IMG/VR virus record: IMGVR_UViG_3300008448_000890
Coordinates: 1 to 20,003 of that record
Length of the DNA stretch: 20,003 nucleotides
Strand: one strand, 5' to 3'
Origin: a virus
A model generated the notes under the pieces. It had not been told where the DNA came from, ran no database searches, and saw only the letters and a list, made by a program, of their open reading frames with translations. Position 1 is the stretch's first letter, and each line of letters starts with the position of its first letter. Below, one piece after another: positions 1 through 8,405 of the stretch. The position numbers and the translations under genes were made by a program.

Positions 1-375
1 GATATATTTTCCCTCAAATTCGGGGAGCATGGCGATAACTTTACCATTGACAATCTGAACATATTTTGCCTTGTCAAGTGGCTTGTCTTGTGACTTTACC
101 ATGAAGTGCGGGGATTTGTAGGGATTGTAAGTCACCTCGTCACGATAAACAGGGGAGTTGGGTATGAAAGGGAAACGCTCGCCAATCATTGCGGCGTGGA
201 CATTCTTTCTCTTTTCTTTGATTACTCGCTGGCGACCAGCCTCGCTAACCTTAAAGGTTACGTTGATAAGGTTAATGTCGTTAGTATGCTCAACGACTTT
301 CCAACGTCCATTCACTTTTTCTTGAACGCTGTAGAGTTTTTTGTGGAGGTTGCGATAGATTCTTACTTTTGTCAT
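1..375 (-). CDS. Conserved phage protein of the 'YRNLHK' type, C-terminus outside the window
   Basis: The frame is open from ATG at 375 down to base 1 with no stop, giving 125 residues of a longer protein. It begins MTKVRIYRNLHKKLYSVQ and continues with VTFKVSEAGRQRVIKEKRKNVHA around residues 40-62. From memory this resembles a family of small phage hypotheticals with an RNLHK...YSV start and a KVSEAGR..V..E.RKNVHA segment. No biochemical role is known to me. The start is fixed by a sigma70 promoter whose -10 box ends 9 nt before the ATG. It is the first gene after the double palindrome at 491-556. Confidence 0.8.
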   Translation of the reverse strand, partial: MTKVRIYRNLHKKLYSVQEKVNGRWKVVEHTNDINLINVTFKVSEAGRQRVIKEKRKNVHAAMIGERFPFIPNSPVYRDEVTYNPYKSPHFMVKSQDKPLDKAKYVQIVNGKVIAMLPEFEGKYI

Positions 376-384
376 GGCAAGAGA

Positions 385-413
385 AAAATACACTTTATAC
401 GGCTATTTGTCAA
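385..413 (-). promoter_or_regulatory. Sigma70 promoter of the gene starting at 375
   Basis: TTGACA (408-413), 17-nt spacer, TATTTT (385-390), 9 nt (TCTCTTGCC), ATG. The seventh base after the -10 is G, predicting a 3-nt leader. Confidence 0.8.
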
Positions 414-490
414 CAACTTTTTGTAAATAAAAATCAAATAAATAGTAAATAAATAACCGTTAAATAACTGTGTAGGGCGAATCTAACAGA

Positions 491-523
491 TTTTTATGCC
501 AGCCCCGCACCTTGGCATAAAAA
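491..523 (-). repeat. 33-bp palindromic element, copy 1 of 8
   Basis: TTTTTAT (491-497), 19-nt centre, ATAAAAA (517-523), preceded by TCTAACAGA. The stem extends inward as GCCA/TGGC, giving 11 perfect pairs. The G-rich strand of the centre is the minus strand. This is the only copy whose GGGG is shifted by two positions. It abuts copy 2 directly and lies in a gene-free stretch between the genes at 1-375 and 594-755. Confidence 0.85.
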
Positions 524-556
524 TTTTTATCATAGCACCCCGCGCCAGTATAAAAA
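524..556 (-). repeat. 33-bp palindromic element, copy 2 of 8
   Basis: TTTTTAT (524-530), 19-nt centre, ATAAAAA (550-556), followed by TTCGTTAGAG. It touches copy 1 without a gap. On the minus strand the centre reads ACTGGCGCGGGGTGCTATG, with GGGG at positions 9-12 as in the other copies. Confidence 0.85.
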
Positions 557-593
557 TTTCGTTAGAGTTTTTGGGGGATTGTCAAGATATTTT

Positions 594-755
594 TTACTTA
601 AAAAAACGGTATTTTGCTCTTGCTTGCAATTCAGCATTGACTTTTTCCAATTCGACTTGAAAGTCAAAACCCTTGGGAACTTTAACGGAAGAATGCATTG
701 CGCTTTTTGCTAGCGATTGTGCAACGGCTTTTTTATCTTGTGCGGTTGTAATCAT
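594..755 (-). CDS. Small phage protein of unknown function, 53 aa
   Basis: ATG at 755, TAA at 594-596. The protein begins MITTAQDKKAVAQSLAKSAM and ends in KYRFFK. It is short, soluble and lysine/alanine-rich, with no recognisable domain. It is supported by its own promoter with the exact TTGACA-17-TAACTT-9-ATG geometry and by tight packing against the HD-domain gene (stop at 800). It is the last gene of its unit, followed by the paired palindromes at 491-556. Confidence 0.7.
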   Translation of the reverse strand: MITTAQDKKAVAQSLAKSAMHSSVKVPKGFDFQVELEKVNAELQARAKYRFFK

Positions 756-764
756 GGCAAGAAA

Positions 765-793
765 AAGTTAGTTGTTTTGTGGTGGGCTGTCAA
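765..793 (-). promoter_or_regulatory. Sigma70 promoter of the gene starting at 755
   Basis: TTGACA (788-793), 17 nt, TAACTT (765-770), TTTCTTGCC, ATG. The spacer shares ACAAAACAAC with the promoters at 1205 and 2203, marking a duplicated subfamily. Confidence 0.8.
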
Positions 794-799
794 GATATT

Positions 800-1195
800 T
801 CAGTCATTAAGTAAGACGGCGAGAGCTTTTTTGTATTTTTCTTTCTGCCGATCTGTTGGAGAGTCTGAAAGGTTGGCGAAGATATCGGCGATTTTAATTT
901 TTTTAGGATTGTAACTACGCGCCACTCTCTCTATGTATTGCGCGTATGTTTCTTCTTTTCGATGCGTCAACCACTCAACACTAACTATCACAGAATCACT
1001 TATCCCAGCTTTCGCAAGATCGTTTTTCGTCCATTTGGTATCTTCCAAAACATCGTGCAGCCAAGCAACTTGCCAAGCCATACTTCCCTTCTTAAAGAAA
1101 GATGCAACGGCTTCGGGGTGCGTGATGTAAGGTGTGACCCCATCGCGGCGGAATTGTCCTGCGTGGGCTTGTGTGGCGATTTCTTGTGCGTTCAT
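800..1195 (-). CDS. Small HD-domain (p)ppGpp hydrolase-like protein (MESH1/RelA-SpoT hydrolase type)
   Basis: 131 aa. Seen: an opening AHAGQFRRDGVTPYITHP (residues 10-27) that matches the first motif of small alarmone hydrolases, WLHDVLEDT (45-53) with the metal-binding His47-Asp48 pair and Glu51-Asp52, and ADIFANLSD (103-111) matching the AD..NL motif of the family. Known: such proteins remove the 3' pyrophosphate of (p)ppGpp using Mn2+ in an HD fold. Inferred: a phage enzyme that lowers host alarmone levels. It is shorter than stand-alone MESH1 (about 180 aa), so it is a minimal HD core, and a different nucleotide or phosphomonoester substrate is possible. Start fixed by its own promoter. 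Confidence 0.82.
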   Translation of the reverse strand: MNAQEIATQAHAGQFRRDGVTPYITHPEAVASFFKKGSMAWQVAWLHDVLEDTKWTKNDLAKAGISDSVIVSVEWLTHRKEETYAQYIERVARSYNPKKIKIADIFANLSDSPTDRQKEKYKKALAVLLND

Positions 1196-1204
1196 GGCAG
1201 AGAT

Positions 1205-1233
1205 ATGTTAGTTGTTTTGGGGTAAGTTGTCAA
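1205..1233 (-). promoter_or_regulatory. Sigma70 promoter of the HD-domain gene
   Basis: TTGACA (1228-1233), 17 nt, TAACAT (1205-1210), ATCTCTGCC, ATG at 1195. Predicted leader GCC, 3 nt. Confidence 0.82.
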
Positions 1234-1246
1234 GATATTTTTTTGA

Positions 1247-1519
1247 TTAAAAAGGGCAATCATCATCGCCCTTTGCGTGTTGCGCGATAGCTCCCGCCCA
1301 GGTTTTTGCTTTCAACGATGCGAGATACTCTTGATGATCCTCCCATTCTTCGGGTGTTCTGTCATCTTCGGGGTGTTGCTGTTCTTCCCCGCGATAAAAC
1401 GGGTTGCGCTCCCAAGTGTCCCAGTCTGTCAAAATCCATTGGCGGTCTTGTTGCTCCATGCCGAAAATTTGAACTTGTTCGGCAATGCCTTCTGCGATGA
1501 TGTGTTGTCTTGCGTCCAT
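1247..1519 (-). CDS. Unknown phage protein, 90 aa, acidic and Trp-rich
   Basis: The protein starts MDARQHIIAEGIAEQVQIFG and ends in KGDDDCPF. The middle third is rich in Glu, Asp, Trp and Gln (ERNPFYRGEEQQHPEDDRT, then PEEWEDHQEYL). No domain recognised and no membrane segment. Its promoter is 5 nt further from the ATG than usual (14 nt), predicting an 8-nt leader ACACCACC. The -35 box of that promoter directly follows the TAA of the upstream gene (1563-1565), so the two genes share no spare sequence. Confidence 0.75.
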   Translation of the reverse strand: MDARQHIIAEGIAEQVQIFGMEQQDRQWILTDWDTWERNPFYRGEEQQHPEDDRTPEEWEDHQEYLASLKAKTWAGAIAQHAKGDDDCPF

Positions 1520-1533
1520 GGTGGTGTGGGGAA

Positions 1534-1562
1534 AGAATAGTTTACTTTGTGCGGTGTGTCAA
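1534..1562 (-). promoter_or_regulatory. Sigma70 promoter of the gene starting at 1519
   Basis: TTGACA (1557-1562), 17 nt, TATTCT (1534-1539). There are 14 nt from the -10 box to the ATG, the one clear exception among the short-leader genes. Confidence 0.78.
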
Positions 1563-1787
1563 TTATTTTTTGATTGTTTTCAGGATGCGATAGCTTTTGA
1601 AAGTAGATCTATCAGCCCAGCCAATTTGAGCAGAAACCAACCAATCCGCTAGTGCTTGGCGAGCGCAAGATTCACTGTTTTCCACTAGCAAGAGATTTGT
1701 TTGATTGTGGAAAGTGCCAACATCGCGACCATCGCGAATGTCTTTTGTTTCGTAGCTAACTTGGGCGAGATATGTGGTGGTGGTCAT
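1563..1787 (-). CDS. Unknown small phage protein, 74 aa
   Basis: The sequence MTTTTYLAQVSYETKDIRDG...LLLVENSESCARQAL...SYRILKTIKK has an alternating beta/alpha/beta look: a beta strand near 5-13, a strand LLLVEN near 32-37, a helix near 40-51 and a C-terminal strand. It could be a small single-domain fold, but I recognise no family. It is the first gene of its unit, downstream of the 29-bp element at 1857 and palindrome copy 3. The promoter has the weaker -35 TTGCGC. Confidence 0.72.
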   Translation of the reverse strand: MTTTTYLAQVSYETKDIRDGRDVGTFHNQTNLLLVENSESCARQALADWLVSAQIGWADRSTFKSYRILKTIKK

Positions 1788-1795
1788 GCAGGGAA

Positions 1796-1824
1796 AGAGT
1801 AGCAGTAAAAACCAATCGGCGCAA
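1796..1824 (-). promoter_or_regulatory. Promoter of the gene starting at 1787 (TTGCGC type)
   Basis: TTGCGC (1819-1824), 17 nt, TACTCT (1796-1801), TTCCCTGC (8 nt), ATG. It belongs to the unit-first class with a non-consensus -35 box. Confidence 0.72.
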
Positions 1825-1856
1825 GTATTTTCTTTGATTATTTTCCGAAAAAAAGT

Positions 1857-1885
1857 TTGTCATACGTGCGAAAAACACTTGACAA
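1857..1885 (-). promoter_or_regulatory. 29-bp upstream element, copy 1
   Basis: On the plus strand, TTGTCA (1857-1862), 17 nt, TGACAA (1880-1885), with conserved CATAC at the near end. It begins 70 nt before the ATG at 1787. Possible operator or upstream promoter. Confidence 0.55.
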
Positions 1886-1911
1886 GTTTCTAACAGAAAG
1901 CGTCTAACAGA

Positions 1912-1944
1912 TTTTTATCTTGGCGAGGGGCGGTCACATAAAAA
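1912..1944 (+). repeat. 33-bp palindromic element, copy 3 of 8
   Basis: TTTTTAT, centre CTTGGCGAGGGGCGGTCAC, ATAAAAA. The outer arms TCTAACAG and TTCGTTAGA extend the inverted repeat to about 16 bp each side with two mismatches. It lies at the 3' end of the unit 2419-2044. Confidence 0.88.
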
Positions 1945-1998
1945 TTCGTTAGACTAACCGATTTTTTTGTTAGATTTTTCTGTTAGATAGCTCCTAAC

Positions 1999-2026
1999 AA
2001 AAAGCCAACCCCTCTCGGGGCTGGCT
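1999..2026 (-). terminator. Rho-independent terminator after the gene at 2044-2193
   Basis: On the minus strand AGCCAGCCCC-GAGA-GGGGTTGGCT (2026-2003) is followed by TTTT. The GC-rich stem with a tetraloop and T run lies 17 nt past the stop codon. Confidence 0.8.
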
Positions 2027-2043
2027 TCGCGTTTGCTTTTCCG

Positions 2044-2193
2044 TTAGACGAACTCCAGAGTGCCTAACGGAACTTCATCCTCGCGCCCATCCTCAAAACG
2101 AATGAGGGCGCGATTTCCAACTGGAGTATTGACAACTTCGACAAGCTCAACTTCTGAGCCACAGTAAATGACGATTTCGATTTCTTCGATCAT
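2044..2193 (-). CDS. Unknown 49-aa acidic phage protein
   Basis: ATG at 2193, TAA at 2044-2046. Protein MIEEIEIVIYCGSEVELVEV then VNTPVGNRALIRFEDGREDE, ending VPLGTLEFV. The pattern of short beta strands (IEIVIYCG, EVELVEVV, RALIRFEDG, EVPLGTLEFV) suggests a small SH3-like beta barrel; this is inference from hydrophobic patterning only. The stop codon lies inside a TCTAAC repeat unit. Followed by a good terminator. Its own promoter has a 16-nt spacer. Confidence 0.72.
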   Translation of the reverse strand: MIEEIEIVIYCGSEVELVEVVNTPVGNRALIRFEDGREDEVPLGTLEFV

Positions 2194-2202
2194 GGCAAAA
2201 GA

Positions 2203-2230
2203 AAGTTAGTTGTTTTGGGGGGATTGTCAA
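2203..2230 (-). promoter_or_regulatory. Sigma70 promoter of the gene starting at 2193
   Basis: TTGACA (2225-2230), 16 nt, TAACTT (2203-2208), TCTTTTGCC, ATG. Predicted leader GCC. Confidence 0.78.
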
Positions 2231-2233
2231 GAT

Positions 2234-2419
2234 TTATTTTCTGTTTTTAAGTATTTCTTCCAATTTGTTTTTATCGTAAAAGAAGCTATCTTCATTCAAT
2301 TTACCGAAGAAAAAAGATTTTGGCTCATCAGCGTCACTGATCTCATAGTCAAGAGAAGACAAGATTTCATAAATGCTTGTGAGTAGGTGAACGGGAACTT
2401 CAATAGTTTGATTTGGCAT
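2234..2419 (-). CDS. Unknown small phage protein, 61 aa
   Basis: The start is taken at ATG 2419 (MPNQTIEVPVHLLTSIYEIL), not at the longer open frame to 2455, because the promoter -10 box ends 9 nt upstream of 2419 and its -35 box covers the longer start. The protein has an amphipathic helix around residues 9-22 (VHLLTSIYEILSSL) and a charged C-terminus (DKNKLEEILKNRK). No family recognised. First gene of its unit, after the 29-bp element at 2490. Confidence 0.73.
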   Translation of the reverse strand: MPNQTIEVPVHLLTSIYEILSSLDYEISDADEPKSFFFGKLNEDSFFYDKNKLEEILKNRK

Positions 2420-2428
2420 GGCGGGGAA

Positions 2429-2457
2429 AGAGTAACAGAAAAAACCAATCAGCACAA
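2429..2457 (-). promoter_or_regulatory. Promoter of the gene starting at 2419 (TTGTGC type)
   Basis: TTGTGC (2452-2457), 17 nt, TACTCT (2429-2434), TTCCCCGCC, ATG. The spacer is nearly identical to that at 1802-1818 (GATTGGTTTTT), so the two are recent copies. Confidence 0.72.
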
Positions 2458-2489
2458 GTATTTTCTTTGATTATTTTCCGAAAAAAAGT

Positions 2490-2518
2490 TTGTCATACGC
2501 GCAAAAAAAACTTGACAA
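2490..2518 (-). promoter_or_regulatory. 29-bp upstream element, copy 2
   Basis: TTGTCA (2490-2495), 17 nt, TGACAA (2513-2518) on the plus strand. It begins 71 nt before the ATG at 2419. Confidence 0.55.
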
Positions 2519-2554
2519 CTTCCTAACACAAAAGCCTAACAGATTTCTAACAGA

Positions 2555-2587
2555 TTTTTATCGGGGAGGGGGGCGGTCACATAAAAA
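2555..2587 (+). repeat. 33-bp palindromic element, copy 4 of 8
   Basis: TTTTTAT, centre CGGGGAGGGGGGCGGTCAC, ATAAAAA. It is preceded by three CTAACA units at 2523, 2536 and 2547 that look like iterons, and followed by GTTAGACTAACAG. Confidence 0.88.
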
Positions 2588-2640
2588 TTCGTTAGACTAA
2601 CAGTTTTTTGTCTTTTTTTTGTCTTTTTTTTGCATTTTTT

Positions 2641-2672
2641 GAGGGGAGCGGCTAACCATAACCGCCCCCCTC
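2641..2672. terminator. GC-rich stem-loop at the 3' end of the gene at 2682-2978
   Basis: GAGGGGAGCGG (2641-2651), 10-nt loop, CCGCCCCCCTC (2662-2672). It lies 9 nt past the stop codon. On the minus strand it is followed by A residues, not T, so it is either a 3'-protecting hairpin or a non-canonical terminator. Confidence 0.5.
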
Positions 2673-2681
2673 TGCCATGCA

Positions 2682-2978
2682 TCAATCCACCACGATTGAA
2701 AACTCTTTGTCAATCTTGCCGCATTTCAGGGCAAGAACTTTTTCGGGTTTGAAGCAGAAGTAGCTGTTGCGGTTGCGGTCAACAGCGAACATGTAGCCGC
2801 CTTGACGAAGCGCATTAGTGGCGGGAGAGCCAGTGCCTTTGACCAAACCAGTGAAACGGTCTTTTGCGTTAATGGTGCGGATTGTGCCATCTTTCTTGGC
2901 AAACGTAAGAGAAAAGAATTTTCCTTTTGTTGCGTCGATGAGGGCGGCGATTTCTTCTTTAGTGGGTGTGTGTTGCAT
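2682..2978 (-). CDS. SH3 beta-barrel (WYL_2-like) phage protein
   Basis: 98 aa from ATG 2978 (MQHTPTKEEIAALIDATKGK). After an N-terminal helix comes FFSLTFAKKDGTIRTINAKDR (residues 21-41), then YMFAVDRNRNSYFCFKPEKVLAL. This order, helix then F.V.F.KKDGT.R..., then ...V.D......R.F....V..., is what I know from small phage proteins annotated as SH3 beta-barrel/WYL_2. Their role is unknown, probably nucleic-acid or protein binding. The frame stays open to 3206, but that 174-aa reading overlaps the next gene in another frame and crosses this gene's promoter, so the short start is preferred. The leader is 22 nt and A/C-rich. Confidence 0.75.
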   Translation of the reverse strand: MQHTPTKEEIAALIDATKGKFFSLTFAKKDGTIRTINAKDRFTGLVKGTGSPATNALRQGGYMFAVDRNRNSYFCFKPEKVLALKCGKIDKEFSIVVD

Positions 2979-3006
2979 AGTGTTTGTTTTGTTAGTAGGC
3001 GGGAGA

Positions 3007-3035
3007 ATGTTAGCGAATTTTTCGGAGTTTGTCAA
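3007..3035 (-). promoter_or_regulatory. Sigma70 promoter with A/C-rich leader, gene starting at 2978
   Basis: TTGACA (3030-3035), 17 nt, TAACAT (3007-3012). The predicted start G3000 gives a 22-nt leader containing TAACAAAACAAAC with no Shine-Dalgarno sequence. Confidence 0.78.
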
Positions 3036-3036
3036 C

Positions 3037-3213
3037 TTATTTTTTGCATAAGTTTTGTAGATGTGCCAGAGCATAGCAAGTTGCGCCGAAAAGAATGAAG
3101 CACAAGCAATCAAACAATTCGTTTTTGCCCCGATAGATAGCAAACGCGCAAAGGCTGAAAGTAGGCGAGAGAGTAACGACTGCGGATGAGAAGATGAGGA
3201 TTGCATTTTTCAT
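3037..3213 (-). CDS. Small two-helix membrane protein, 58 aa
   Basis: ATG at 3213, TAA at 3037-3039. Protein MKNAILIFSSAVVTLSPTFS then LCAFAIYRGKNELFDCLCFI, ending in LQNLCKK. Two hydrophobic stretches (about 4-26 and 35-51) are separated by a charged YRGKNELFD turn, so a hairpin in the inner membrane is predicted. It has the same size and layout as the proteins at 4577-4750 and 6484-6660. It is read in a different frame from the longer overlapping open frame 2682-3206. The promoter and A/C-rich leader support it. Confidence 0.72.
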   Translation of the reverse strand: MKNAILIFSSAVVTLSPTFSLCAFAIYRGKNELFDCLCFILFGATCYALAHLQNLCKK

Positions 3214-3243
3214 TGTGGTGTTGTGTTGTTAGTAGGCGGGGAA

Positions 3244-3272
3244 AGAATAGTTTATTTTTGCGGAGTTGTCAA
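3244..3272 (-). promoter_or_regulatory. Sigma70 promoter with A/C-rich leader, gene starting at 3213
   Basis: TTGACA (3267-3272), 17 nt, TATTCT (3244-3249). The predicted leader is 24 nt starting at G3237 and contains TAACAACACAA, shared with the leader before 7071. Confidence 0.8.
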
Positions 3273-3280
3273 CAAGTTTT

Positions 3281-3520
3281 TTATGCAAGTGCGCGTTTTG
3301 CGCGGAAAGTTCTCAACAGTCTTGCAGCTTCTTTGCGCGAAACAAAAAGAGCAACTGCCATATTTGCACCGCCGAAGATAACCATTTCTTCCATGCATTG
3401 AGAGCGGCGGAAGCGGGTCATCTCGAAAAGTTCGCAATCATATTTTGTGCGTTCTGCGGTGCGAGTAGTGGTGAATTTTCCATTGGAGTTGATTTTGATG
3501 AATTGCTGTTGTGGTGTCAT
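3281..3520 (-). CDS. Unknown phage protein, 79 aa, basic C-terminus
   Basis: The protein MTPQQQFIKINSNGKFTTTR...YDCELFEMTRFRRSQC...MVIFGGANMAVALFVSRKEAARLLRTFRAKRALA has a strand-rich N-terminal half and a basic helix at the end (RKEAARLLRTFRAKRA), suitable for nucleic-acid contact. The hydrophobic GGANMAVALFV segment is too short for a confident membrane span. No family recognised. First gene of its unit, but its -35 box is TTGACT, an exception to the TTGCGY rule. Confidence 0.75.
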   Translation of the reverse strand: MTPQQQFIKINSNGKFTTTRTAERTKYDCELFEMTRFRRSQCMEEMVIFGGANMAVALFVSRKEAARLLRTFRAKRALA

Positions 3521-3529
3521 GGCGGGGAG

Positions 3530-3558
3530 AGAATAGTCTTTTTTGCGCGAATAGTCAA
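3530..3558 (-). promoter_or_regulatory. Sigma70 promoter of the gene starting at 3520
   Basis: TTGACT (3553-3558), 17 nt with GCGCAAAAAA, TATTCT (3530-3535), CTCCCCGCC, ATG. Confidence 0.8.
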
Positions 3559-3590
3559 CATTTTTTTTGTTTTATTTTCAGAAAAAAGTT

Positions 3591-3619
3591 TTGTCATACA
3601 TGAGAAAAACGCTTGACAA
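3591..3619 (-). promoter_or_regulatory. 29-bp upstream element, copy 3
   Basis: TTGTCA (3591-3596), 17 nt, TGACAA (3614-3619) on the plus strand, beginning 71 nt before the ATG at 3520. Confidence 0.55.
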
Positions 3620-3644
3620 CTTTCTAACAGAAACGTCTAACGAT

Positions 3645-3677
3645 TTTTTATCTCGGCGCGGGGCGGTCACATAAAAA
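3645..3677 (+). repeat. 33-bp palindromic element, copy 5 of 8
   Basis: TTTTTAT, centre CTCGGCGCGGGGCGGTCAC, ATAAAAA. CTAACA and CTAACG units precede it. A minus-strand TTGACA (3686-3691) points into it, as also seen at copies 2 and 8. Confidence 0.88.
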
Positions 3678-3713
3678 TTTCTCAGTTGTCAAGCTTTTTT
3701 TTTATTTTTTTTC

Positions 3714-3759
3714 GTTAGAGAGCGCCTCCCGTTTCTGTTAGAGAGGCGCTGAGTCTAAC
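3714..3759. terminator. Long stem-loop past the 18-aa peptide gene
   Basis: GTTAGA-g-AGCGCCTC pairs with GAGGCGCT-gag-TCTAAC, with a 14-nt loop. T5 follows on the plus strand (3762-3766) and an A run on the minus strand. It may block plus-strand transcription or close the minus-strand unit. Confidence 0.45.
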
Positions 3760-3764
3760 GCTTT

Positions 3765-3821
3765 TTATTTTCTGTCTGCCAAGATGAATAGCAGCACTGC
3801 AACCAGCAAGAAAAAAATCAT
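3765..3821 (-). CDS. Possible 18-aa membrane micropeptide
   Basis: ATG at 3821, TAA at 3765-3767, 11 nt after the stop of the gene 3833-4528. The peptide MIFFLLVAVLLFILADRK is one perfect hydrophobic helix with a charged end, unlikely in random AT-rich sequence. There is no promoter of its own and no Shine-Dalgarno, so it would be translated from the upstream gene's message. Chance cannot be excluded. Confidence 0.35.
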   Translation of the reverse strand: MIFFLLVAVLLFILADRK

Positions 3822-3832
3822 TTTTTTGCGCG

Positions 3833-4528
3833 TTAGTGTTCGATCACAAAACCGCTTTCGTCTTTTTTCGCCTTGCCTTTCTCGACAAGTCCGATGATTT
3901 TTCCCGCGCCATCGAGGAAGCGCAAGTCTGTTTCGTCTCCATTGATTACGTCAACGCCTAACCATTTTGCGGGAAGAGACTTTCTGAAAACCATTGCGAC
4001 ATTGCCGCCAGACTTTAGAATTGATTCAGCGATTGCACCGTTAGTCTCAGACTTGGAAAAAGTCAAGTGATAATTTTTTGGCATTTCACCAGCAAGGAAA
4101 GCCGTCATTCTTTCGGGCGACTTGGTGTAGTCGTAAAACATCACTTGCGGGAACAGTTGGAAAACTGTCTTGTCATTCAATTTGATTTTTTCCCATGGCA
4201 AGTCAGAAGTGAGATTTAGGCGGAAAACGGCAGTGAGGCTCTGCTTTTCGGCAGACTTAATGGCGGCGGCAATTTCTTTGATTAATTGCGCCAAGAAAGC
4301 AACTTTATTTTTGAAAAACAAACGTGTCTTTTCAATTCGCGCAAGTTGCACGTTTGAGAATGCGCCCATGCCAGCGGTATTTAAGCACGATGCGGCACAG
4401 CCAGCAGAAGCATCTTTGCAGACGTTAAAGCCAGAGAGTGAAGCGGGGGCGAGGTGAATGCCAAAGGTTTTGAAACCGATTTTTTCACCTTTGCGGATTT
4501 TTGCGTTTGCGGTAGTAAGTAATTTCAT
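3833..4528 (-). CDS. GP88-like phage protein
   Basis: 231 aa, by far the longest gene of the left arm. The start MKLLTTANAKIRKGEKIGF... followed by GIHLAPASLSGFNVCKDASA and GCAASCLNTAGMGAF (residues about 23-57) matches the hallmark of the widespread phage 'gene product 88' family: LAP..LSG.N.CP.A..GC...CL...G....N.Q.AR..KT. Also seen: ARIEKTRLFF, FRLNLTSDLPWE and FYDYTK, all typical of the family. The conserved cysteines (37, 44, 48) may bind metal. Function unknown. The promoter fixes the start at 4528. Confidence 0.85.
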   Translation of the reverse strand: MKLLTTANAKIRKGEKIGFKTFGIHLAPASLSGFNVCKDASAGCAASCLNTAGMGAFSNVQLARIEKTRLFFKNKVAFLAQLIKEIAAAIKSAEKQSLTAVFRLNLTSDLPWEKIKLNDKTVFQLFPQVMFYDYTKSPERMTAFLAGEMPKNYHLTFSKSETNGAIAESILKSGGNVAMVFRKSLPAKWLGVDVINGDETDLRFLDGAGKIIGLVEKGKAKKDESGFVIEH

Positions 4529-4537
4529 GACGGGGAA

Positions 4538-4565
4538 AAGTTAGCAGATTGAGAGATTTTGTCAA
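4538..4565 (-). promoter_or_regulatory. Sigma70 promoter of the GP88-like gene
   Basis: TTGACA (4560-4565), 16 nt, TAACTT (4538-4543), TTCCCCGTC, ATG. Confidence 0.8.
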
Positions 4566-4576
4566 CAGGTTTTTTA

Positions 4577-4750
4577 TTATTTTTCTTTCAACGCTTCCGA
4601 AAGCATAACAAACAAACCCATCGAACCAACAAAACAAGCGATGCATCCAACGTGGACATGCGTTTCGCAAGATTGCGCTCCCGTGATGATTGAAAAAGCG
4701 GCGACGAAAAGACTAAAAACAGCAAGGGCAAAGATAACAAAGTATTTCAT
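4577..4750 (-). CDS. Small two-helix membrane protein, 57 aa
   Basis: The start is ATG 4750 (MKYFVIFALAVFSLFVAAFS), fixed by the promoter, in preference to the longer frame to 4759, whose start falls outside the predicted transcript. Two hydrophobic spans (about 3-23 and 36-51) flank a Cys/His-containing turn (SCETHVHVGC), and the C-terminus SEALKEK is charged. It resembles the proteins at 6484-6660 (both start MKYF) and 3037-3213 in length and layout. Inferred role: inner-membrane modulator such as a superinfection-exclusion or host-takeover peptide; no direct evidence. Confidence 0.73.
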   Translation of the reverse strand: MKYFVIFALAVFSLFVAAFSIITGAQSCETHVHVGCIACFVGSMGLFVMLSEALKEK

Positions 4751-4759
4751 GATGCGCAA

Positions 4760-4788
4760 AGAGTAGCATTTCGGGAGCCAACGCGCAA
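4760..4788 (-). promoter_or_regulatory. Promoter of the gene starting at 4750 (TTGCGC type)
   Basis: TTGCGC (4783-4788), 17 nt, TACTCT (4760-4765), TTGCGCATC, ATG. The seventh base after the -10 is A. Confidence 0.7.
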
Positions 4789-4819
4789 GTATTTTTTTCT
4801 ATTTTTTAATCTTTTTTTT

Positions 4820-4848
4820 GTGTCATATTGCGATTTTTTTCTTGACAA
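4820..4848 (-). promoter_or_regulatory. 29-bp upstream element, copy 4
   Basis: GTGTCA (4820-4825), 17 nt, TGACAA (4843-4848) on the plus strand, beginning 70 nt before the ATG at 4750. Near end CATAT. Confidence 0.5.
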
Positions 4849-4893
4849 ACAGCTCAGCCAGCCCCCTAACGGATTTTTCTAACATCTAACGGA

Positions 4894-4926
4894 TTTTTAT
4901 GGGGGCGCGGGGCGCTGGCATAAAAA
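4894..4926 (+). repeat. 33-bp palindromic element, copy 6 of 8
   Basis: TTTTTAT, centre GGGGGCGCGGGGCGCTGGC, ATAAAAA. Preceded by CTAACGG, CTAACA and CTAACGG units. Confidence 0.88.
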
Positions 4927-4928
4927 TT

Positions 4929-4960
4929 GTTAGACCAGAAGCTTTTGCCGCTGGTCTAAC
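4929..4960 (-). terminator. Stem-loop terminator after the acidic protein gene
   Basis: GTTAGACCAG (4929-4938) pairs perfectly with CTGGTCTAAC (4951-4960) around a 12-nt loop. Read on the minus strand it is followed by AATTTTTAT, whose T run is the arm of palindrome copy 6, so it would work as an intrinsic terminator 23 nt past the stop codon. Confidence 0.62.
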
Positions 4961-4983
4961 AGATTGGCGAGGCGCGGGAACTG

Positions 4984-5217
4984 TTAGAAGTCCCCACAGC
5001 AGCCGTCCATGCCATACTCCGATTGGTCTTCCCAGTAGGAATCGAGATAGCGGTCTTCACCGCCCTCATACTCATAATCCTCCCAGTCCCCATCGAGGTG
5101 GGAGTCATCGAGAGGTTCAGGGTCGGGGAGTTGGTCGGCAGGGTCCGCGAACGCTTCCATGGCTGCGGTGTATTCTTCGAACTCGGCGGTGGTGGTGATG
5201 AATGGATGAGGAAACAT
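4984..5217 (-). CDS. Highly acidic 77-aa phage protein
   Basis: MFPHPFITTTAEFEEYTAAM is followed by a long Asp/Glu-rich tract (residues about 25-70: LPDPEPLDDSHLDGDWEDYE, then YEGGEDRYLDSYWEDQSEYG) and a CCGDF end. The charge is strongly negative with few basic residues and many Trp/Tyr. Acidic small phage proteins sometimes mimic DNA to block host nucleic-acid enzymes; that role is only an inference here. It forms a unit alone, with its own TTGCGT promoter and terminator hairpin. Confidence 0.75.
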   Translation of the reverse strand: MFPHPFITTTAEFEEYTAAMEAFADPADQLPDPEPLDDSHLDGDWEDYEYEGGEDRYLDSYWEDQSEYGMDGCCGDF

Positions 5218-5226
5218 GACAGGGAG

Positions 5227-5255
5227 AGAATAGCCCCGAACTGATAAAAACGCAA
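5227..5255 (-). promoter_or_regulatory. Promoter of the gene starting at 5217 (TTGCGT type)
   Basis: TTGCGT (5250-5255), 17 nt, TATTCT (5227-5232), CTCCCTGTC, ATG. Confidence 0.73.
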
Positions 5256-5287
5256 GAACTTTTTTCTATTTTGTGCAAAAAAGTTTT

Positions 5288-5316
5288 TTCGAGAAAGCGC
5301 ATTTTTTTGTTGACAA
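5288..5316 (-). promoter_or_regulatory. 29-bp upstream element, degenerate copy
   Basis: TGACAA (5311-5316) sits at the expected place, but the other half is TTCGAG instead of TTGTCA. It begins 71 nt before the ATG at 5217. Confidence 0.35.
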
Positions 5317-5352
5317 GTTTCTAACGAAAACGCTTTTTCCGCATCTAACAGA

Positions 5353-5385
5353 TTTTTATCAAAGCGGGGGGCGCTCGCATAAAAA
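5353..5385 (+). repeat. 33-bp palindromic element, copy 7 of 8
   Basis: TTTTTAT, centre CAAAGCGGGGGGCGCTCGC, ATAAAAA, with outer arms TCTAACAG and TTCGTTAGA as in copies 3 and 4. Confidence 0.88.
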
Positions 5386-5388
5386 TTC

Positions 5389-5420
5389 GTTAGACTAACA
5401 GCTTTTGCCGCTAGCCTAAC
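5389..5420 (-). terminator. Stem-loop after the gene at 5445-5696
   Basis: GTTAGACTAA and CTAGCCTAAC can pair (8 of 10) around the same AGCTTTTGCCGCT region as at 4929-4960. On the minus strand it is followed by GAATTTTTAT from palindrome copy 7. Confidence 0.5.
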
Positions 5421-5444
5421 AGATTTGATGAAGCTTAAAAGTTG

Positions 5445-5696
5445 TTAGACCACAAGGTCAATTCCCGCAAGATGCAAGTTGCGGTATTTACTTTCTCCGC
5501 CATCGTCAACATCAAACGCTTTCACGGTGACATAACGCTTGCCATTTTTGGCAAAGGCGACATTTTCAACAGCTTCAATTTTCAGGACGCGAACGCCGCT
5601 TTTTGTAACGCTAGACTTTTCCGCAAAGTAGCGCACGGTTTTATTGACAAGGGCGGAAACGAGTTTTTCAGTTGGTGTATTGTAGTCGAAGAACAT
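5445..5696 (-). CDS. Unknown 83-aa phage protein, possible SH3/WYL-like barrel
   Basis: After MFFDYNTPTEKLVSALVNKT comes a run of strands: VRYFAEKSS, VRVLKIEAVENVAFAKNG, KRYVTVKAFDVDDGGESKYR and NLHLAGIDLVV. The order R..KIE.....NGK.YVTV.AFD.D.GE.R...L..I resembles WYL-type beta barrels, which bind nucleic acid or nucleotide ligands, but similarity is only by pattern. The stop lies in GGTCTAACAAC. The -35 of its promoter overlaps the TGA of the upstream gene (5731-5733). Confidence 0.75.
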   Translation of the reverse strand: MFFDYNTPTEKLVSALVNKTVRYFAEKSSVTKSGVRVLKIEAVENVAFAKNGKRYVTVKAFDVDDGGESKYRNLHLAGIDLVV

Positions 5697-5705
5697 AACG
5701 AGGAA

Positions 5706-5734
5706 AAGATAGAAGATTTTTGCGGTGGAGTCAA
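5706..5734 (-). promoter_or_regulatory. Sigma70 promoter of the gene starting at 5696
   Basis: TTGACT (5729-5734), 17 nt with CGCAAAAA, TATCTT (5706-5711), TTCCTCGTT, ATG. The -35 contains the stop codon of the upstream gene. Confidence 0.8.
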
Positions 5735-5892
5735 GAAAAAATCACTTCAAAAGTGGAAAAATTTTTGATGATTCTTTTCAAGTAATCAATCACTTCATGC
5801 GCTGGATCATCGCCTAACGGATGCGAGCCTTGACGCTCATTCATGCGATAAGAAACAAAACCAGCGTGGACAGTAAAAACAAGATGATTCAT
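5731..5892 (-). CDS. Unknown 53-aa phage protein
   Basis: ATG at 5892, TGA at 5731-5733. The protein MNHLVFTVHAGFVSYRMNER continues QGSHPLGDDPAHEVIDYLKR and ends IIKNFSTFEVIFS. A beta hairpin followed by one helix (AHEVIDYLKRIIK) is likely. No family recognised. It is the third of three tandem genes whose ATG is preceded by the same CTCTGAYACAATTA signal instead of a TTGACA promoter, and it overlaps the next gene's promoter. Confidence 0.62.
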   Translation of the reverse strand: MNHLVFTVHAGFVSYRMNERQGSHPLGDDPAHEVIDYLKRIIKNFSTFEVIFS

Positions 5893-5898
5893 ATTGTA

Positions 5899-5907
5899 AT
5901 TGTATCA
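5899..5907 (-). promoter_or_regulatory. Extended -10 promoter-like repeat before 5892
   Basis: TGA-TACAAT (5907-5899), then TACAAT, then ATG. A start 7 nt after the -10 would be the A of the ATG. The repeat GAACTCTGATACAATTACA is shared with 6174 upstream. No good -35 box. Confidence 0.5.
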
Positions 5908-5922
5908 GAGTTCCTTAGATTG

Positions 5923-6174
5923 TTATACTAAACCTTGCAGCAATTGACTAACCCAAATTTTCTTACTTGTGTCAATTACTTTTCCTTCGTTTGTAGCAGT
6001 GCGAACAGTCACGATTCGGTCAGGTTTACCAAAGCGAGTCGAGACATCTTCCAGACCAATTACCGTGCTGACATAAAACCAGTGGCGACCGATAGCATGA
6101 AAGATTTGATTTGAGGTGAAAACGTCACCAACGCAAACTTCTAAGTAGGATGGATTTACTTTATTGGTGTTCAT
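5923..6174 (-). CDS. Unknown 83-aa phage protein, strand-rich
   Basis: The protein MNTNKVNPSYLEVCVGDVFT...HAIGRHWFYVSTVIGLEDVSTRFGKPDRIVTVRTATNEGKVID...WVSQLLQGLV reads as a series of beta strands with VGDVF, FYVSTVIG and RIVTVRTA, consistent with a small barrel. No family recognised. It is spaced 12 nt from the upstream stop; the upstream TGA (6187-6189) also serves as the TGn of its extended -10 sequence. It ends in TAA 30 nt before the next ATG. Confidence 0.74.
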   Translation of the reverse strand: MNTNKVNPSYLEVCVGDVFTSNQIFHAIGRHWFYVSTVIGLEDVSTRFGKPDRIVTVRTATNEGKVIDTSKKIWVSQLLQGLV

Positions 6175-6180
6175 ACTGTA

Positions 6181-6189
6181 ATTGTATCA
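6181..6189 (-). promoter_or_regulatory. Extended -10 promoter-like repeat before 6174
   Basis: TGA-TACAAT (6189-6181), then TACAGT, then ATG. The TGA is also the stop codon of the upstream gene. Confidence 0.5.
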
Positions 6190-6402
6190 GAGTTCGTTTA
6201 GTTCTTTAACCTTATCAGTCATCTCCCAGAATCCACTAGTGGATTGGTATCTCACAAGAAAGCCGAGATTAACAAGTTGACGAACAGTCTTCAATTGAGC
6301 ATCTGTGTAAGCAAAGACCAGGCGTTTGTCGCCATACTGCTTCGTTGGAGGGTTAGCAAGAAACCTCTTCTGATTACCTGTAAGTCGGGCTGTATTGTTC
6401 AT
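6187..6402 (-). CDS. Possible winged-helix phage protein, 71 aa
   Basis: From ATG 6402 (MNNTARLTGNQKRFLANPPT). The second half, TDAQLKTVRQLVNLGFLVRY then QSTSGFWEMTDKVKELNEL, has the helix, L..LG.L......G.W.MT......L order of a small winged-helix domain of MarR type; pattern-based inference. The start is uncertain: the normal promoter at 6442-6470 puts an ACG codon (6430-6432) exactly where every other gene has ATG, in frame and without a stop for ten codons (ACG ATA AAA ... GGC ATG). Either ACG is a rare start, or the ATG at 6402, preceded by the CTCTGACACAATTA repeat, is used. Confidence 0.68.
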   Translation of the reverse strand: MNNTARLTGNQKRFLANPPTKQYGDKRLVFAYTDAQLKTVRQLVNLGFLVRYQSTSGFWEMTDKVKELNEL

Positions 6403-6407
6403 GCCTA

Positions 6408-6416
6408 ATTGTGTCA
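6408..6416 (-). promoter_or_regulatory. Extended -10-like repeat before 6402
   Basis: TGA-CACAAT (6416-6408), then 5 nt and ATG. Third and most diverged copy of the CTCTGAYACAATTA signal. Confidence 0.4.
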
Positions 6417-6441
6417 GAGTTCGTTTTATCGTGGCGGCGAA

Positions 6442-6470
6442 AGTATAGTATTTTCGGGGCAAGGTGTCAA
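6442..6470 (-). promoter_or_regulatory. Sigma70 promoter facing an ACG codon
   Basis: TTGACA (6465-6470), 17 nt, TATACT (6442-6447), TTCGCCGCC, then ACG at 6432 where the other promoters have ATG. Confidence 0.78.
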
Positions 6471-6483
6471 CAAATTTCTTTGA

Positions 6484-6660
6484 TTATTTCATGGCAAGGA
6501 CAATCTTTTGCATACGGAAGAAAAAGAGAGCTGTAACGATAAAGGCGATACCATAACAAACGTGTTCCCCGATTGTTTTCGCCTCAGTAGCGGCGAGAAC
6601 GATAATGCAAGGGGCAAAGAGGGAAACAGCGGCGATTGTAAGCGTGGCGAAGTATTTCAT
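6484..6660 (-). CDS. Small two-helix membrane protein, 58 aa
   Basis: ATG at 6660, TAA at 6484-6486. Protein MKYFATLTIAAVSLFAPCII then VLAATEAKTIGEHVCYGIAF, ending in RMQKIVLAMK. Hydrophobic spans lie at about 5-24 and 35-48 with a charged, His/Cys-containing linker. The first residues MKYF and the layout match the protein at 4577-4750. Both may descend from one duplicated cassette including the promoter. Confidence 0.72.
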   Translation of the reverse strand: MKYFATLTIAAVSLFAPCIIVLAATEAKTIGEHVCYGIAFIVTALFFFRMQKIVLAMK

Positions 6661-6669
6661 GACGGGGAA

Positions 6670-6698
6670 AGAATAGAAGATTTTTGCGATATTGTCAA
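6670..6698 (-). promoter_or_regulatory. Sigma70 promoter of the gene starting at 6660
   Basis: TTGACA (6693-6698), 17 nt with CGCAAAAA, TATTCT (6670-6675), TTCCCCGTC, ATG. Confidence 0.82.
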
Positions 6699-6723
6699 CA
6701 AGTTTTTTTTGTTTTTTTATTTA

Positions 6724-7071
6724 TTATACAATCTCCCAAATGGTGGTTTTGTATTCACGCACGATACAGAATTCGCGGCGAGTAATCCAATCAGCGGGAA
6801 CAAGGTGTGTTTTTGTTTTCACACCGTCTGCTTCGATTGCGTTAATCAGGTGGCAGTTGTAACCGTCTAACACTGCAAAGCCTCCATTGCAAGGCTCAAG
6901 TTGCACCTTGTCGCCAGCTTTAACATTGAGCGTATTGTAGTGCAACTCCACAGTAAAATCTTTTGCGGCATAGTAGTTAAAGAACGTCTTGCCTTGTGTT
7001 GTCTTGGCTTCGGTGTTGATTTCTTTTGTGATTACTTCGGTGACGAATTGCGGTGTAGTGGTAGGTGTCAT
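6724..7071 (-). CDS. Unknown 115-aa phage protein
   Basis: The protein from ATG 7071 starts MTPTTTPQFVTEVITKEINT, with VKAGDKVQLEPCNGGFAVLDGYNCHLINAI in the middle and REFCIVREYKTTIWEIV at the end. The strand-rich middle suggests a small barrel. The frame extends to a GTG at 7095 that would coincide with the predicted transcript start (+1 G). ATG 7071 is preferred because the intervening 24 nt contain TAACAACACAA, the leader motif also found before 3213 and, in a variant, before 2978. Confidence 0.7.
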   Translation of the reverse strand: MTPTTTPQFVTEVITKEINTEAKTTQGKTFFNYYAAKDFTVELHYNTLNVKAGDKVQLEPCNGGFAVLDGYNCHLINAIEADGVKTKTHLVPADWITRREFCIVREYKTTIWEIV

Positions 7072-7101
7072 GTCGTTTGTGTTGTTATTGCTCACGGGGA
7101 A

Positions 7102-7130
7102 AGTATAGCGCGAAACGCATAGAAACGCAA
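7102..7130 (-). promoter_or_regulatory. Promoter with A/C-rich leader (TTGCGT type), gene at 7071/7095
   Basis: TTGCGT (7125-7130), 17 nt, TATACT (7102-7107), TTCCCC, then G7095 as predicted start. Confidence 0.73.
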
Positions 7131-7224
7131 GAACTTTTTTGTATTTTTTCTCATATTTATTTTGCGGCGATGTGTATTTTTTTCTTTACAAGAACCTAAC
7201 AGAAACAGCTTTTTATCTAACAGA

Positions 7225-7257
7225 TTTTTATGCCAAGGCCCCGCCCCAGCGTAAAAA
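7225..7257 (-). repeat. 33-bp palindromic element, copy 8 of 8
   Basis: TTTTTAT (7225-7231), 19-nt centre, GTAAAAA (7251-7257, one mismatch). The G-rich strand is minus, GCTGGGGCGGGGCCTTGGC, with GGGG at positions 9-12. TCTAACAG precedes it. It lies at the 3' end of the unit 8334-7308. Confidence 0.85.
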
Positions 7258-7307
7258 TTTCTTACGTGTCAAGTTTTTTTTATTTATTTTTTTTTCTTGA
7301 CAAAAGC

Positions 7308-7550
7308 CTAACAGCGCAAACTGTTCGGCAGAGAATTGATTCCGCGCATCCGTTCTGCCTGTTCCTCGCGTATATCTTCCGCAAGTTGCGCTTCGTGTTC
7401 TTTGCGGAGTTCCTCGGCAAATTCGGGATTACATTGGTCGCATCCGTCCCCTAATAGGTGATGAGCGAGGGTCTGGCATTTACACCCAAAAGGCGAAGAT
7501 GCCGAACAATTCGTGAGAGGCAACGCCTCGGAGTTGGTTGGTGTAGTCAT
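7308..7550 (-). CDS. Small Cys-rich phage protein, possible zinc binder
   Basis: 80 aa. The N-terminal half has FGCKCQTLAHHLLGDGCDQC (C-x-C ... C-x2-C plus two His), suggesting a zinc knuckle. The second half is a charged helix (FAEELRKEHEAQLAEDIREE). Its ATG overlaps the stop of the upstream gene (ATGA, 7547-7550), so it is translated by coupling and needs no promoter of its own, the only such case in the left arm. GGAGG lies 16-17 nt upstream, too far for a normal Shine-Dalgarno. Confidence 0.75.
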   Translation of the reverse strand: MTTPTNSEALPLTNCSASSPFGCKCQTLAHHLLGDGCDQCNPEFAEELRKEHEAQLAEDIREEQAERMRGINSLPNSLRC

Positions 7551-7816
7551 AGCGGTTTGGTGCGGGCCTCCACAGAGGCGTTAGCGCGTAGCATTTTGGC
7601 GAGTGCGTCTGATGATTTTTTTTCGTTAGCTTCATCTTGGATTTCGATGAAGTGCAGGGACTGATAGCCAACCCAACCGCTTTCAAAGATTGCGGTTTGA
7701 CCGTCCCAATGGGAAAAGATTCCGTAGTTAGTTTTTGTCCCTTTTTTCAAGGTATCGGAAAGTTGCGATGCAACGGATGCGAAGTAAGCGGCGGTGCCGT
7801 AGAGCAAGGTATTCAT
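7547..7816 (-). CDS. Unknown 89-aa phage protein
   Basis: MNTLLYGTAAYFASVASQLS starts with a moderately hydrophobic helix, followed by strands YGIFSHWDGQTAIFES and YQSLHFIEIQDEA and a helix SSDALAKMLRANASVEAR. The first 20 residues could be a membrane or signal-like helix, but there is no clear charged n-region. No family recognised. Overlaps the next gene by 4 nt. Confidence 0.74.
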   Translation of the reverse strand: MNTLLYGTAAYFASVASQLSDTLKKGTKTNYGIFSHWDGQTAIFESGWVGYQSLHFIEIQDEANEKKSSDALAKMLRANASVEARTKPL

Positions 7817-7825
7817 GACGGGGAA

Positions 7826-7854
7826 AGTATAAGTTTTTTTTGCGCGTTAGTCAA
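7826..7854 (-). promoter_or_regulatory. Sigma70 promoter of the gene starting at 7816
   Basis: TTGACT (7849-7854), 17 nt with GCGCAAAAAA, TATACT (7826-7831), TTCCCCGTC, ATG. Confidence 0.84.
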
Positions 7855-7872
7855 CAATTTTCTTTTGTTTTT

Positions 7873-8067
7873 TTAGAACATTTTCAACTGTTCGGGCAAG
7901 ATTTTTTCTGTTTTTTCTTGACTGTCTGACAAGTCGCGGAACTTTACAACAACGAATTTTTCGCCCTTGTCGTTGATTTTCGTTTCTGTTGCAATCACGC
8001 GCACGGGGCGAGCTGTTGTTGCTGTTGTGAGTGTGGCGAGATTGAATTGTGGGTTCCAGTATTGCAT
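7873..8067 (-). CDS. Unknown 64-aa phage protein, strand-rich
   Basis: MQYWNPQFNLATLTTATTAR is followed by PVRVIATETKINDKGEKFVV and VKFRDLSDSQEKTEKILPEQLKMF. The V.VI..E......GEK.VVVKFRD.......I....L pattern parallels the strand order at 5445-5696, so both may be small SH3-like barrels. No firm family. Stop 19 nt before the next gene's -35. Confidence 0.73.
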   Translation of the reverse strand: MQYWNPQFNLATLTTATTARPVRVIATETKINDKGEKFVVVKFRDLSDSQEKTEKILPEQLKMF

Positions 8068-8076
8068 GACGGGGAA

Positions 8077-8105
8077 AGTATAGAATGTTTTTGCGCGTTA
8101 GTCAA
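8077..8105 (-). promoter_or_regulatory. Sigma70 promoter of the gene starting at 8067
   Basis: TTGACT (8100-8105), 17 nt with GCGCAAAAA, TATACT (8077-8082), TTCCCCGTC, ATG. One of the best matches to the shared cassette. Confidence 0.85.
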
Positions 8106-8133
8106 CAAGTTTTTTTGTTTTTTTGCGGGGAGC

Positions 8134-8334
8134 TTAAAGCTCCTCCGCTTCGATGATGTTATCCTCATAAGACAGCTCAGGATGAAAAGGACATGCGCCA
8201 AGGAAGCCCACATGAGGCTTTCCGTTATAGTCAAATTCAACTTCCCATTCCGCCCAATTGTCATCTACGCGATCAGCGATAGAAACAAAAGCAAGGTCGG
8301 TAACGTCAGCGGTGTTAAGTGATGCAATTCTCAT
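8134..8334 (-). CDS. Unknown acidic 66-aa phage protein
   Basis: The start is ATG 8334 (MRIASLNTADVTDLAFVSIA), not the longer frame to 8412, because the -10 box ends 9 nt before it and the longer reading crosses the promoter. The protein is acidic with WAEWEVEFDYNGKPHVGFLG and ends SYEDNIIEAEEL. Strand-rich. No family recognised. It is the first left-arm gene, facing away from the right arm. Confidence 0.74.
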   Translation of the reverse strand: MRIASLNTADVTDLAFVSIADRVDDNWAEWEVEFDYNGKPHVGFLGACPFHPELSYEDNIIEAEEL

Positions 8335-8343
8335 GACGGGGAA

Positions 8344-8372
8344 AGTGTAACCTGAAACATGCGGAAACGCAA
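8344..8372 (-). promoter_or_regulatory. Promoter of the gene starting at 8334 (TTGCGT type)
   Basis: TTGCGT (8367-8372), 17 nt, TACACT (8344-8349), TTCCCCGTC, ATG. Confidence 0.72.
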
Positions 8373-8405
8373 GAACTTTTTTTGTGTGATGCGAAAAAAA
8401 CTTTT

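What the first reader, a model, noticed from the sequence alone, without database searches (positions are those of the whole stretch)
800..1195. Phage-encoded minimal alarmone hydrolase
The 131-aa protein keeps the HD motif and the AHAGQ..DG.TPYI.HP opening of small (p)ppGpp hydrolases. A phage that degrades ppGpp could keep host growth and translation active or disarm alarmone-based immunity.
Basis: partly seen in the sequence, partly recalled or inferred. Interest (0 to 1): 0.55.

Follow-up and report, generated by a model that had tools for sequence, protein, structure and literature searches.

The report
Phage-encoded small alarmone hydrolase gene
An uncultured phage carries, in an exchangeable gene slot, a small intact-looking enzyme gene of a well-known kind that probably strips stress-signal pyrophosphate from nucleotides or tRNA; similar phage enzymes are already known, so it is a new member rather than a new kind of system.

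Summary
The ORF is real: 131 aa, minus strand, 800-1195, with every catalytic residue of the RelA/SpoT-type hydrolase domain. Its confident predicted fold (pLDDT 97.4) matches the (p)ppApp hydrolase Aph1 best (Z 20.6) and human MESH1 well (Z 16.8). Such genes are common in phages (443 of 50,697 records), and one, PaSpo of Salmonella phage SSU5, is published to undo tRNA pyrophosphorylation by a toxSAS toxin.

The protein keeps an Arg needed for (p)ppGpp hydrolysis in Rel/SpoT. The Aph1-like group has Asp there plus an Arg at Asn+5 (62 of 62 Asp-type, 0 of 46 Arg-type). But MESH1 and PaSpo, which also act on adenosine substrates, carry that Arg too, so the substrate stays open.

It is not a toxin-immunity gene like Aph1: no MuF-Apk2 toxin was found in the window or in 12 records with close homologues. 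It has its own promoter-like element and sits in a variable slot; 0 of 41 TerL-related records carry it. Most likely it is an accessory early gene that reverses alarmone or tRNA pyrophosphorylation. Activity is untested. Also noted: a seemingly leaderless, Shine-Dalgarno-free phage.

The parts
800..1195 (-). small alarmone hydrolase (SAH) gene, 131 aa
1115..1165 (-). residues 11-27 HAGQFRRDGVTPYITHP: substrate loop with Arg16 (RelSeq R44 position), Tyr23, and metal ligand His26
   Evidence: alignments A2, A3, A6; residue roles from PMC13299517 and PMC9974481
1040..1060 (-). residues 46-52 LHDVLED: HD metal ligands His47/Asp48 and catalytic Glu51/Asp52
   Evidence: H47, D48, E51 and D52 identical in 113 of 113 distinct homologues
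872..895 (-). residues 101-108 KIADIFAN: Lys101, metal ligand Asp104, Asn108; no Arg at Asn+5
1205..1233 (-). promoter-like TTGACA-N17-TAACAT, 9 nt before the ATG, no Shine-Dalgarno-like run
469..1787 (.). variable slot that holds the SAH gene: collinear relatives match on both sides (181-468 and 1788 onward) but carry other small genes between

Best explanation
The gene encodes an active, Mn2+-dependent 3'-pyrophosphohydrolase of the small alarmone hydrolase group, of the Arg-loop type, made from its own early-type promoter as an exchangeable accessory gene. During infection it most likely strips 3'-pyrophosphate from alarmones, (p)ppGpp and/or (p)ppApp, and possibly from pyrophosphorylated tRNA 3' ends, and so keeps translation and nucleotide pools open against the stringent response or toxSAS/CapRel-like defence. 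Shown by computation: homology, fold, catalytic residues, Arg-loop type, no linked MuF-Apk2 toxin, variable slot, promoter-like element. Inferred: activity, substrate range, timing of expression, benefit to the phage.
For: Catalytic residues complete and fold confident. Arg16 kept; the equivalent R44Q (RelSeq) and R45A (SpoT) abolish (p)ppGpp hydrolysis (PMC13299517, PMC9974481; passages). The phage SSU5 enzyme PaSpo is also Arg-loop type and undoes FaRel2's tRNA modification (PMC11559606). MuF-Apk2 profile: 0 of 13 Arg-type records (window + 12) against 4 of 5 Asp-type records picked as controls. Own promoter-like element. Variable slot and patchy presence fit an accessory gene.
Against: No activity is shown for P0001 or for any member of its 20-row clade in the sources read. 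SpoT R144, which helps hold the 3'-pyrophosphate, is Ile105 here. PaSpo is only 30% identical over 122 columns. Absence from 41 of 41 TerL-related records (many short fragments) means it is not needed by the lineage. Early timing is inferred from promoter-like sequence and strand only; the host is unknown.
Confidence: 0.55

Rival explanations
1. It is a dedicated (p)ppGpp hydrolase that only relaxes the host stringent response.
For: Arg16 as in the long RelA/SpoT proteins (15 of 15 long rows with the RelA/SpoT-type tail carry Arg); [quoted passage not shown]
Against: MESH1 and PaSpo carry the same Arg and also act on adenosine substrates; size and fold are nearer Aph1 (Z 20.6) than SpoT (14.3) or RelSeq (13.0).
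Confidence: 0.2
2. It is an Aph1-like (p)ppApp-specific hydrolase serving as immunity protein of a toxin or as protection from (p)ppApp toxins.
For: Aph1 is the nearest solved relative by sequence and fold; the best hits in the phage collection are proteins encoded next to MuF genes.
Against: It lacks the Asp/Arg pair that 62 of 62 Asp-type homologues share; no MuF domain or MuF-Apk2 toxin in the window or in the 12 records with close homologues; own promoter-like element, not in a toxin operon.
Confidence: 0.12
3. It acts on another nucleotide (for example PAPS, NADPH or a phage-made nucleotide) and has no link with alarmones.
For: The HD fold is versatile; human MESH1 is solved with NADPH and with PAPS.
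Against: The whole RSH-type set Arg16, Tyr23, Glu51/Asp52, Lys101, Asn108 is kept.
Confidence: 0.1

Closest known systems
Aph1, adenosine 3'-pyrophosphohydrolase (PDB 7smg; immunity gene of MuF-Apk2 prophage toxins)
   Same: minimal ~130-149 aa HD domain; best sequence and fold match
   Different: Aph1-type proteins have Asp at the Arg16 site and Arg at Asn+5; in S. pneumoniae, Mannheimia and Pasteurella phages they lie next to a MuF gene
PaSpo, small alarmone hydrolase of Salmonella phage SSU5
   Same: phage-encoded stand-alone hydrolase, Arg-loop type; published to reverse toxSAS tRNA pyrophosphorylation (PMC11559606). That SSU5_099 is PaSpo is my identification: the only gene annotated as metal-dependent phosphohydrolase in the 100 kb viewed
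   Different: 213 aa, 30% identity over 122 columns
MESH1 / Mesh1 (HDDC3)
   Same: fold, catalytic set, Arg loop followed by TPYI.HP
   Different: ~178 aa; about 30% identity over 130 aligned residues
Small alarmone hydrolase of Pakpunavirus Adele and relatives
   Same: phage accessory SAH; a Pakpunavirus homologue (L007, phage Kat) falls in the same supported clade
   Different: Tyr at the Arg16 column in phage Kat; substrate also unknown there (PMC12846349)

Membership tests
Small alarmone hydrolase (stand-alone RSH HD domain) | HD metal ligands and ED catalytic pair | tested here: met
   H26, H47, D48, E51, D52, D104, N108
Small alarmone hydrolase (stand-alone RSH HD domain) | RSH-type hydrolase fold without a synthetase domain | tested here: met
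   AF2 pLDDT 97.4; Z 14-21 to SAH and SpoT structures; the protein is 131 aa in all
Small alarmone hydrolase (stand-alone RSH HD domain) | Pfam HD_4 curated cut-off | tested here: not met
   23.7 against 27.2 bits; a score threshold, not a biological feature; phrog_990 gives 139.6 bits
Small alarmone hydrolase (stand-alone RSH HD domain) | hydrolysis of 3'-pyrophosphate from alarmones | not testable with these tools
   needs purified protein
Aph1 (p)ppApp hydrolase | Asp at the RelSeq R44 site with Arg at Asn+5 (signature found here; that it sets specificity is my inference) | tested here: not met
   P0001 has Arg16 and Pro at Asn+5; Asp-type 62 of 62 have the Arg
Aph1 (p)ppApp hydrolase | linkage to a MuF-Apk2 toxin | tested here: not met
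   0 hits in the window with PF04233 and with the A5 profile; the contig is a fragment
Aph1 (p)ppApp hydrolase | specific hydrolysis of (p)ppApp | not testable with these tools
   needs an assay
toxSAS-neutralising phage SAH (PaSpo-like) | Arg-loop type phage SAH | tested here: met
toxSAS-neutralising phage SAH (PaSpo-like) | removal of pyrophosphate from the tRNA CCA end | not testable with these tools
   needs an assay
Long RelA/SpoT (Rel, RelA, SpoT) | synthetase and regulatory domains | tested here: not met
   131 aa ORF; PF04607 no match in the window, though PF04607 also misses 2 of 3 phages with the MuF-linked layout

The most novel reading that the evidence does not exclude
The Arg-loop orphan clade (P0001 and 19 mostly viral relatives) is a dedicated counter-defence family: early, exchangeable phage enzymes that erase the products of alarmone- or tRNA-pyrophosphorylating immunity (toxSAS/CapRel type), evolved apart from the Asp-loop Aph1 immunity proteins that protect prophage carriers from their own toxins. 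The Asp/Arg charge swap would let one tell the two roles apart from sequence alone.
Probability: 0.3. Interest if true: 0.6.

Novelty: new member of a known kind. Interest (0 to 1): 0.32.

Why it matters
Phages that erase alarmone or tRNA pyrophosphorylation marks would show that toxSAS/CapRel-type immunity and the stringent response matter in natural phage-host conflict. The clean Arg-loop versus Asp-loop split gives a simple, testable rule for sorting hundreds of phage 'HD phosphohydrolases' into toxin-immunity genes and free-standing antidotes. The gene itself is one more member of a common phage family.

Tried and rejected
Chance or mis-called ORF: rejected. Start codon doubt: the ATG at 1195 sits 9 nt after a promoter-like element, the same distance as in the other 7 exact matches, so it was kept although the N terminus is roughly 4-15 residues shorter than in the close relatives. 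Immunity gene of a linked toxin: no MuF or Apk2 in the window. RelA_SpoT synthetase partner: PF04607 found none in the window or in 21 records, but the same model rang in only 1 of 23 Asp-type records and missed 2 of the 3 phages with the MuF-linked layout, so I rely on the A5 profile instead, which was built from those three phages and rang in 4 of 5 Asp-type records. Those 5 were picked from records that already had a MuF hit, so 4 of 5 is not a rate.

Result against my reading: 0 of 41 TerL-related records carry the gene, although the profile rings in 13 of 13 records known to hold it (12 of those 13, the window included, gave sequences to the profile or are duplicates of one that did). All are fragments, some short; I gave the of the 80 loci. 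Arg-loop as a proof of ppGpp specificity: rejected, because MESH1 and PaSpo carry it and act on adenosine substrates.

A single-sequence search of viral contigs found no relative, I think because the seed patterns were too strict; the alignment search found 490 (80 kept). Defence-system models: none of 5 proteins matched. Rfam: no match in 1-9600. Host: not identified. Literature: eight searches; the primary Aph1 paper (PMC10083569), Jimmy et al. 2020 and PMC9293644 are not held, so whether the Asp/Arg swap is already described there is unknown to me. Of PMC10865808 (a phage RelA-like synthetase) passages were read and set aside as not bearing on a hydrolase.

Rows dropped: homologue set = P0001 + all 80 viral loci + 11 of 12 annotated phage/plasmid loci (L005 had no annotation) + 39 of the 80 genome loci, chosen by me; 131 rows, 113 distinct; tree on 95 of 113 (near-copies and poor rows left out). 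In one search the tail was misread by a regular expression in several rows; one search repeats the count on alignment columns and replaces it.

Full report
What is there. The ORF at 800-1195 lies on the minus strand and encodes 131 aa. It matches phrog_990 'metal-dependent phosphohydrolase' at E 2.9e-40, the RelA/SpoT hydrolase region at 4.2e-12, and solved alarmone hydrolases, best 7smg, a (p)ppApp hydrolase, at 4.3e-9. The Pfam HD_4 match (23.7 bits) is under that model's cut-off (27.2). The window is a whole 20,003-base virus record classed as linear. Its plus strand carries PhoH, a sigma-like protein, an ERCC4-type nuclease, TerL and a large gene after TerL (I call it 'portal' from its position, no family model named it), and its minus strand carries many small genes including GP88.

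Catalytic set. Across 113 distinct homologues H26, H47, D48, E51 and D52 are invariant; K101 is in 112, D104 and N108 in 111. These map on the SpoT residues described in PMC9974481 (passages): H54, H78/D79, E82/D83, K140, N147, with R16 and Y23 on R45 and Y51. The mapping is mine by alignment; D104 as metal ligand is recalled knowledge of the family. SpoT R144 is Ile105 here. The AlphaFold model (32-row alignment A2) has mean pLDDT 97.4 and pTM 0.90. Foldseek: 7smg E 3.7e-8, MESH1 3.7e-6, P. aeruginosa SAH 2.2e-5. VIA-align: Z 20.6 with rmsd 1.7 over 129 residues (7smg), 17.2 (PaSAH), 16.8 (MESH1 3nr1), 14.3 (SpoT).

Two types. At the RelSeq R44 column P0001 has Arg16. Of 113 distinct homologues 62 have Asp, 46 Arg, and 5 something else there (3 Tyr, 1 Gly, 1 gap). 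All 62 Asp-type rows have Arg exactly five residues after the conserved Asn; none of the 46 Arg-type rows does (L026 has one at +4). The 15 long RelA/SpoT rows are all Arg-type. The rows are related, so this is a clade signature rather than 62 independent events. The phage relatives encoded right after a MuF gene and a small gene in Streptococcus, Mannheimia and Pasteurella phages are Asp-type; this is the apk2-iapK-aph1 layout described in PMC12226406 (passages). In Rel/SpoT the Arg contacts the base and is needed for (p)ppGpp hydrolysis (PMC13299517 and PMC9974481; passages). It does not prove guanine specificity: MESH1 (QRRKD...TPYI) hydrolyses both alarmones (PMC7644958), and PaSpo of phage SSU5 (QKRKYTG) removes toxSAS-made tRNA modification (PMC11559606). 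Tree: P0001 falls in a 20-row set (18 Arg-type, one Tyr, one gap) with SH-aLRT 98; most forks are unresolved (144 columns). Of the 20 rows, P0001 and 16 others come from viral contigs, two from phage records (L007, L008), and L094 from a bacterial MAG contig of 13 kb.

Not a linked toxin-immunity gene. No Phage_Mu_F or RelA_SpoT domain in the window. Phage_Mu_F rings in 10 of 35 records: 10 of 23 Asp-type and 0 of 12 Arg-type. A profile of three MuF-Apk2 proteins (A5) finds nothing in the window, in 12 records with close Arg-type homologues, or in two close relatives of the window, and rings in 4 of 5 Asp-type records picked for having MuF. PF04607 alone is a poor test.

Setting. The start codon follows TTGACA-N17-TAACAT by 9 nt with no Shine-Dalgarno-like run. 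Close relatives of the phage exist: TerL 96% identical in L176 (a 133,831-base record). Its record matches the window on both sides of the gene (181-468 and from 1788) but carries other small genes between; a second relative (G005) does the same. None of 41 TerL-related records has the gene, while the same profile finds it in 13 of 13 known carriers. More distant relatives L021/L022 (TerL 40%, sigma 37%) do carry an Arg-type SAH near TerL. So this is an accessory gene in an exchangeable slot.

How it works, most likely. Established knowledge of the family gives the chemistry: Mn2+-activated water attacks the 3'-pyrophosphate. I infer that the phage uses it to erase alarmones and perhaps tRNA-PP, against the stringent response or toxSAS-type defence. 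Fold, residues, type, slot and promoter-like element are computed results; activity, substrate and benefit are inference.

What is known. SAH relatives are found in 443 of 50,697 phage records at E <= 1e-5, 614 at 1e-3. A 2025 paper on Pseudomonas phage Adele annotates one and says that its substrate cannot be reliably predicted (PMC12846349, passages). PaSpo is used experimentally against FaRel2 and with CapRel (PMC11559606, PMC9712102; passages). I therefore file the gene as a new member of a known kind.

Noticed in passing
window 373-8105, minus strand; also L018, L019, L020, L026, L029, L254, L255: Small minus-strand genes have their own TTGAC[AT]-N17-TANNNT element exactly 9 nt before the ATG (8 matches, 0.06 expected; 10 of 12 with relaxed spacing), and 0 of 19 checked starts (17 genes, two with an alternative start, both strands) have a Shine-Dalgarno-like run: the phage looks leaderless or nearly so. 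Among 80 SAH-bearing viral loci only 4 (L019, L020, L026, L029) have 5 or more such elements, all Arg-type relatives, against 0 of 80 genome loci.
   Followed up: partly
window 8688, 9550, 16561 (+); L176 4988, 5850, 11655: GTGTAA(T/A) boxes shortly before the ATGs of plus-strand genes (5 matches in the window, 0.69 expected), at the same genes in a relative: a candidate late promoter, perhaps for the phage's own sigma-like protein at 10798-11487.
   Followed up: partly
window 13461-16532 (+): TerL carries an intein with a LAGLIDADG domain at about residues 104-482; the TerL of relative L021 lacks it, and matches span it in 12 of 80 TerL-related loci.
   Followed up: partly
window 480, 1901, 2544, 3634, 4883, 5342, 7214: Seven copies of an intergenic ~46-nt hairpin-forming repeat (CTAAC.GATTTTTAT ... 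CATAAAAATT); four copies tested fold with z -2.6 to -6.5; no Rfam match.
   Followed up: partly
window 1-8700: The ~45-60-nt promoter repeats between small genes recur in relatives whose genes between them differ, which could let genes be swapped by recombination between repeats.
   Followed up: no
TerL loci L174-L253: A large uncultured phage lineage: 568 TerL relatives in one capped scan of IMG/VR, contigs up to 133,831 bases, against only weak (<60% identity) matches in 66 of 50,697 named phage records.
   Followed up: partly
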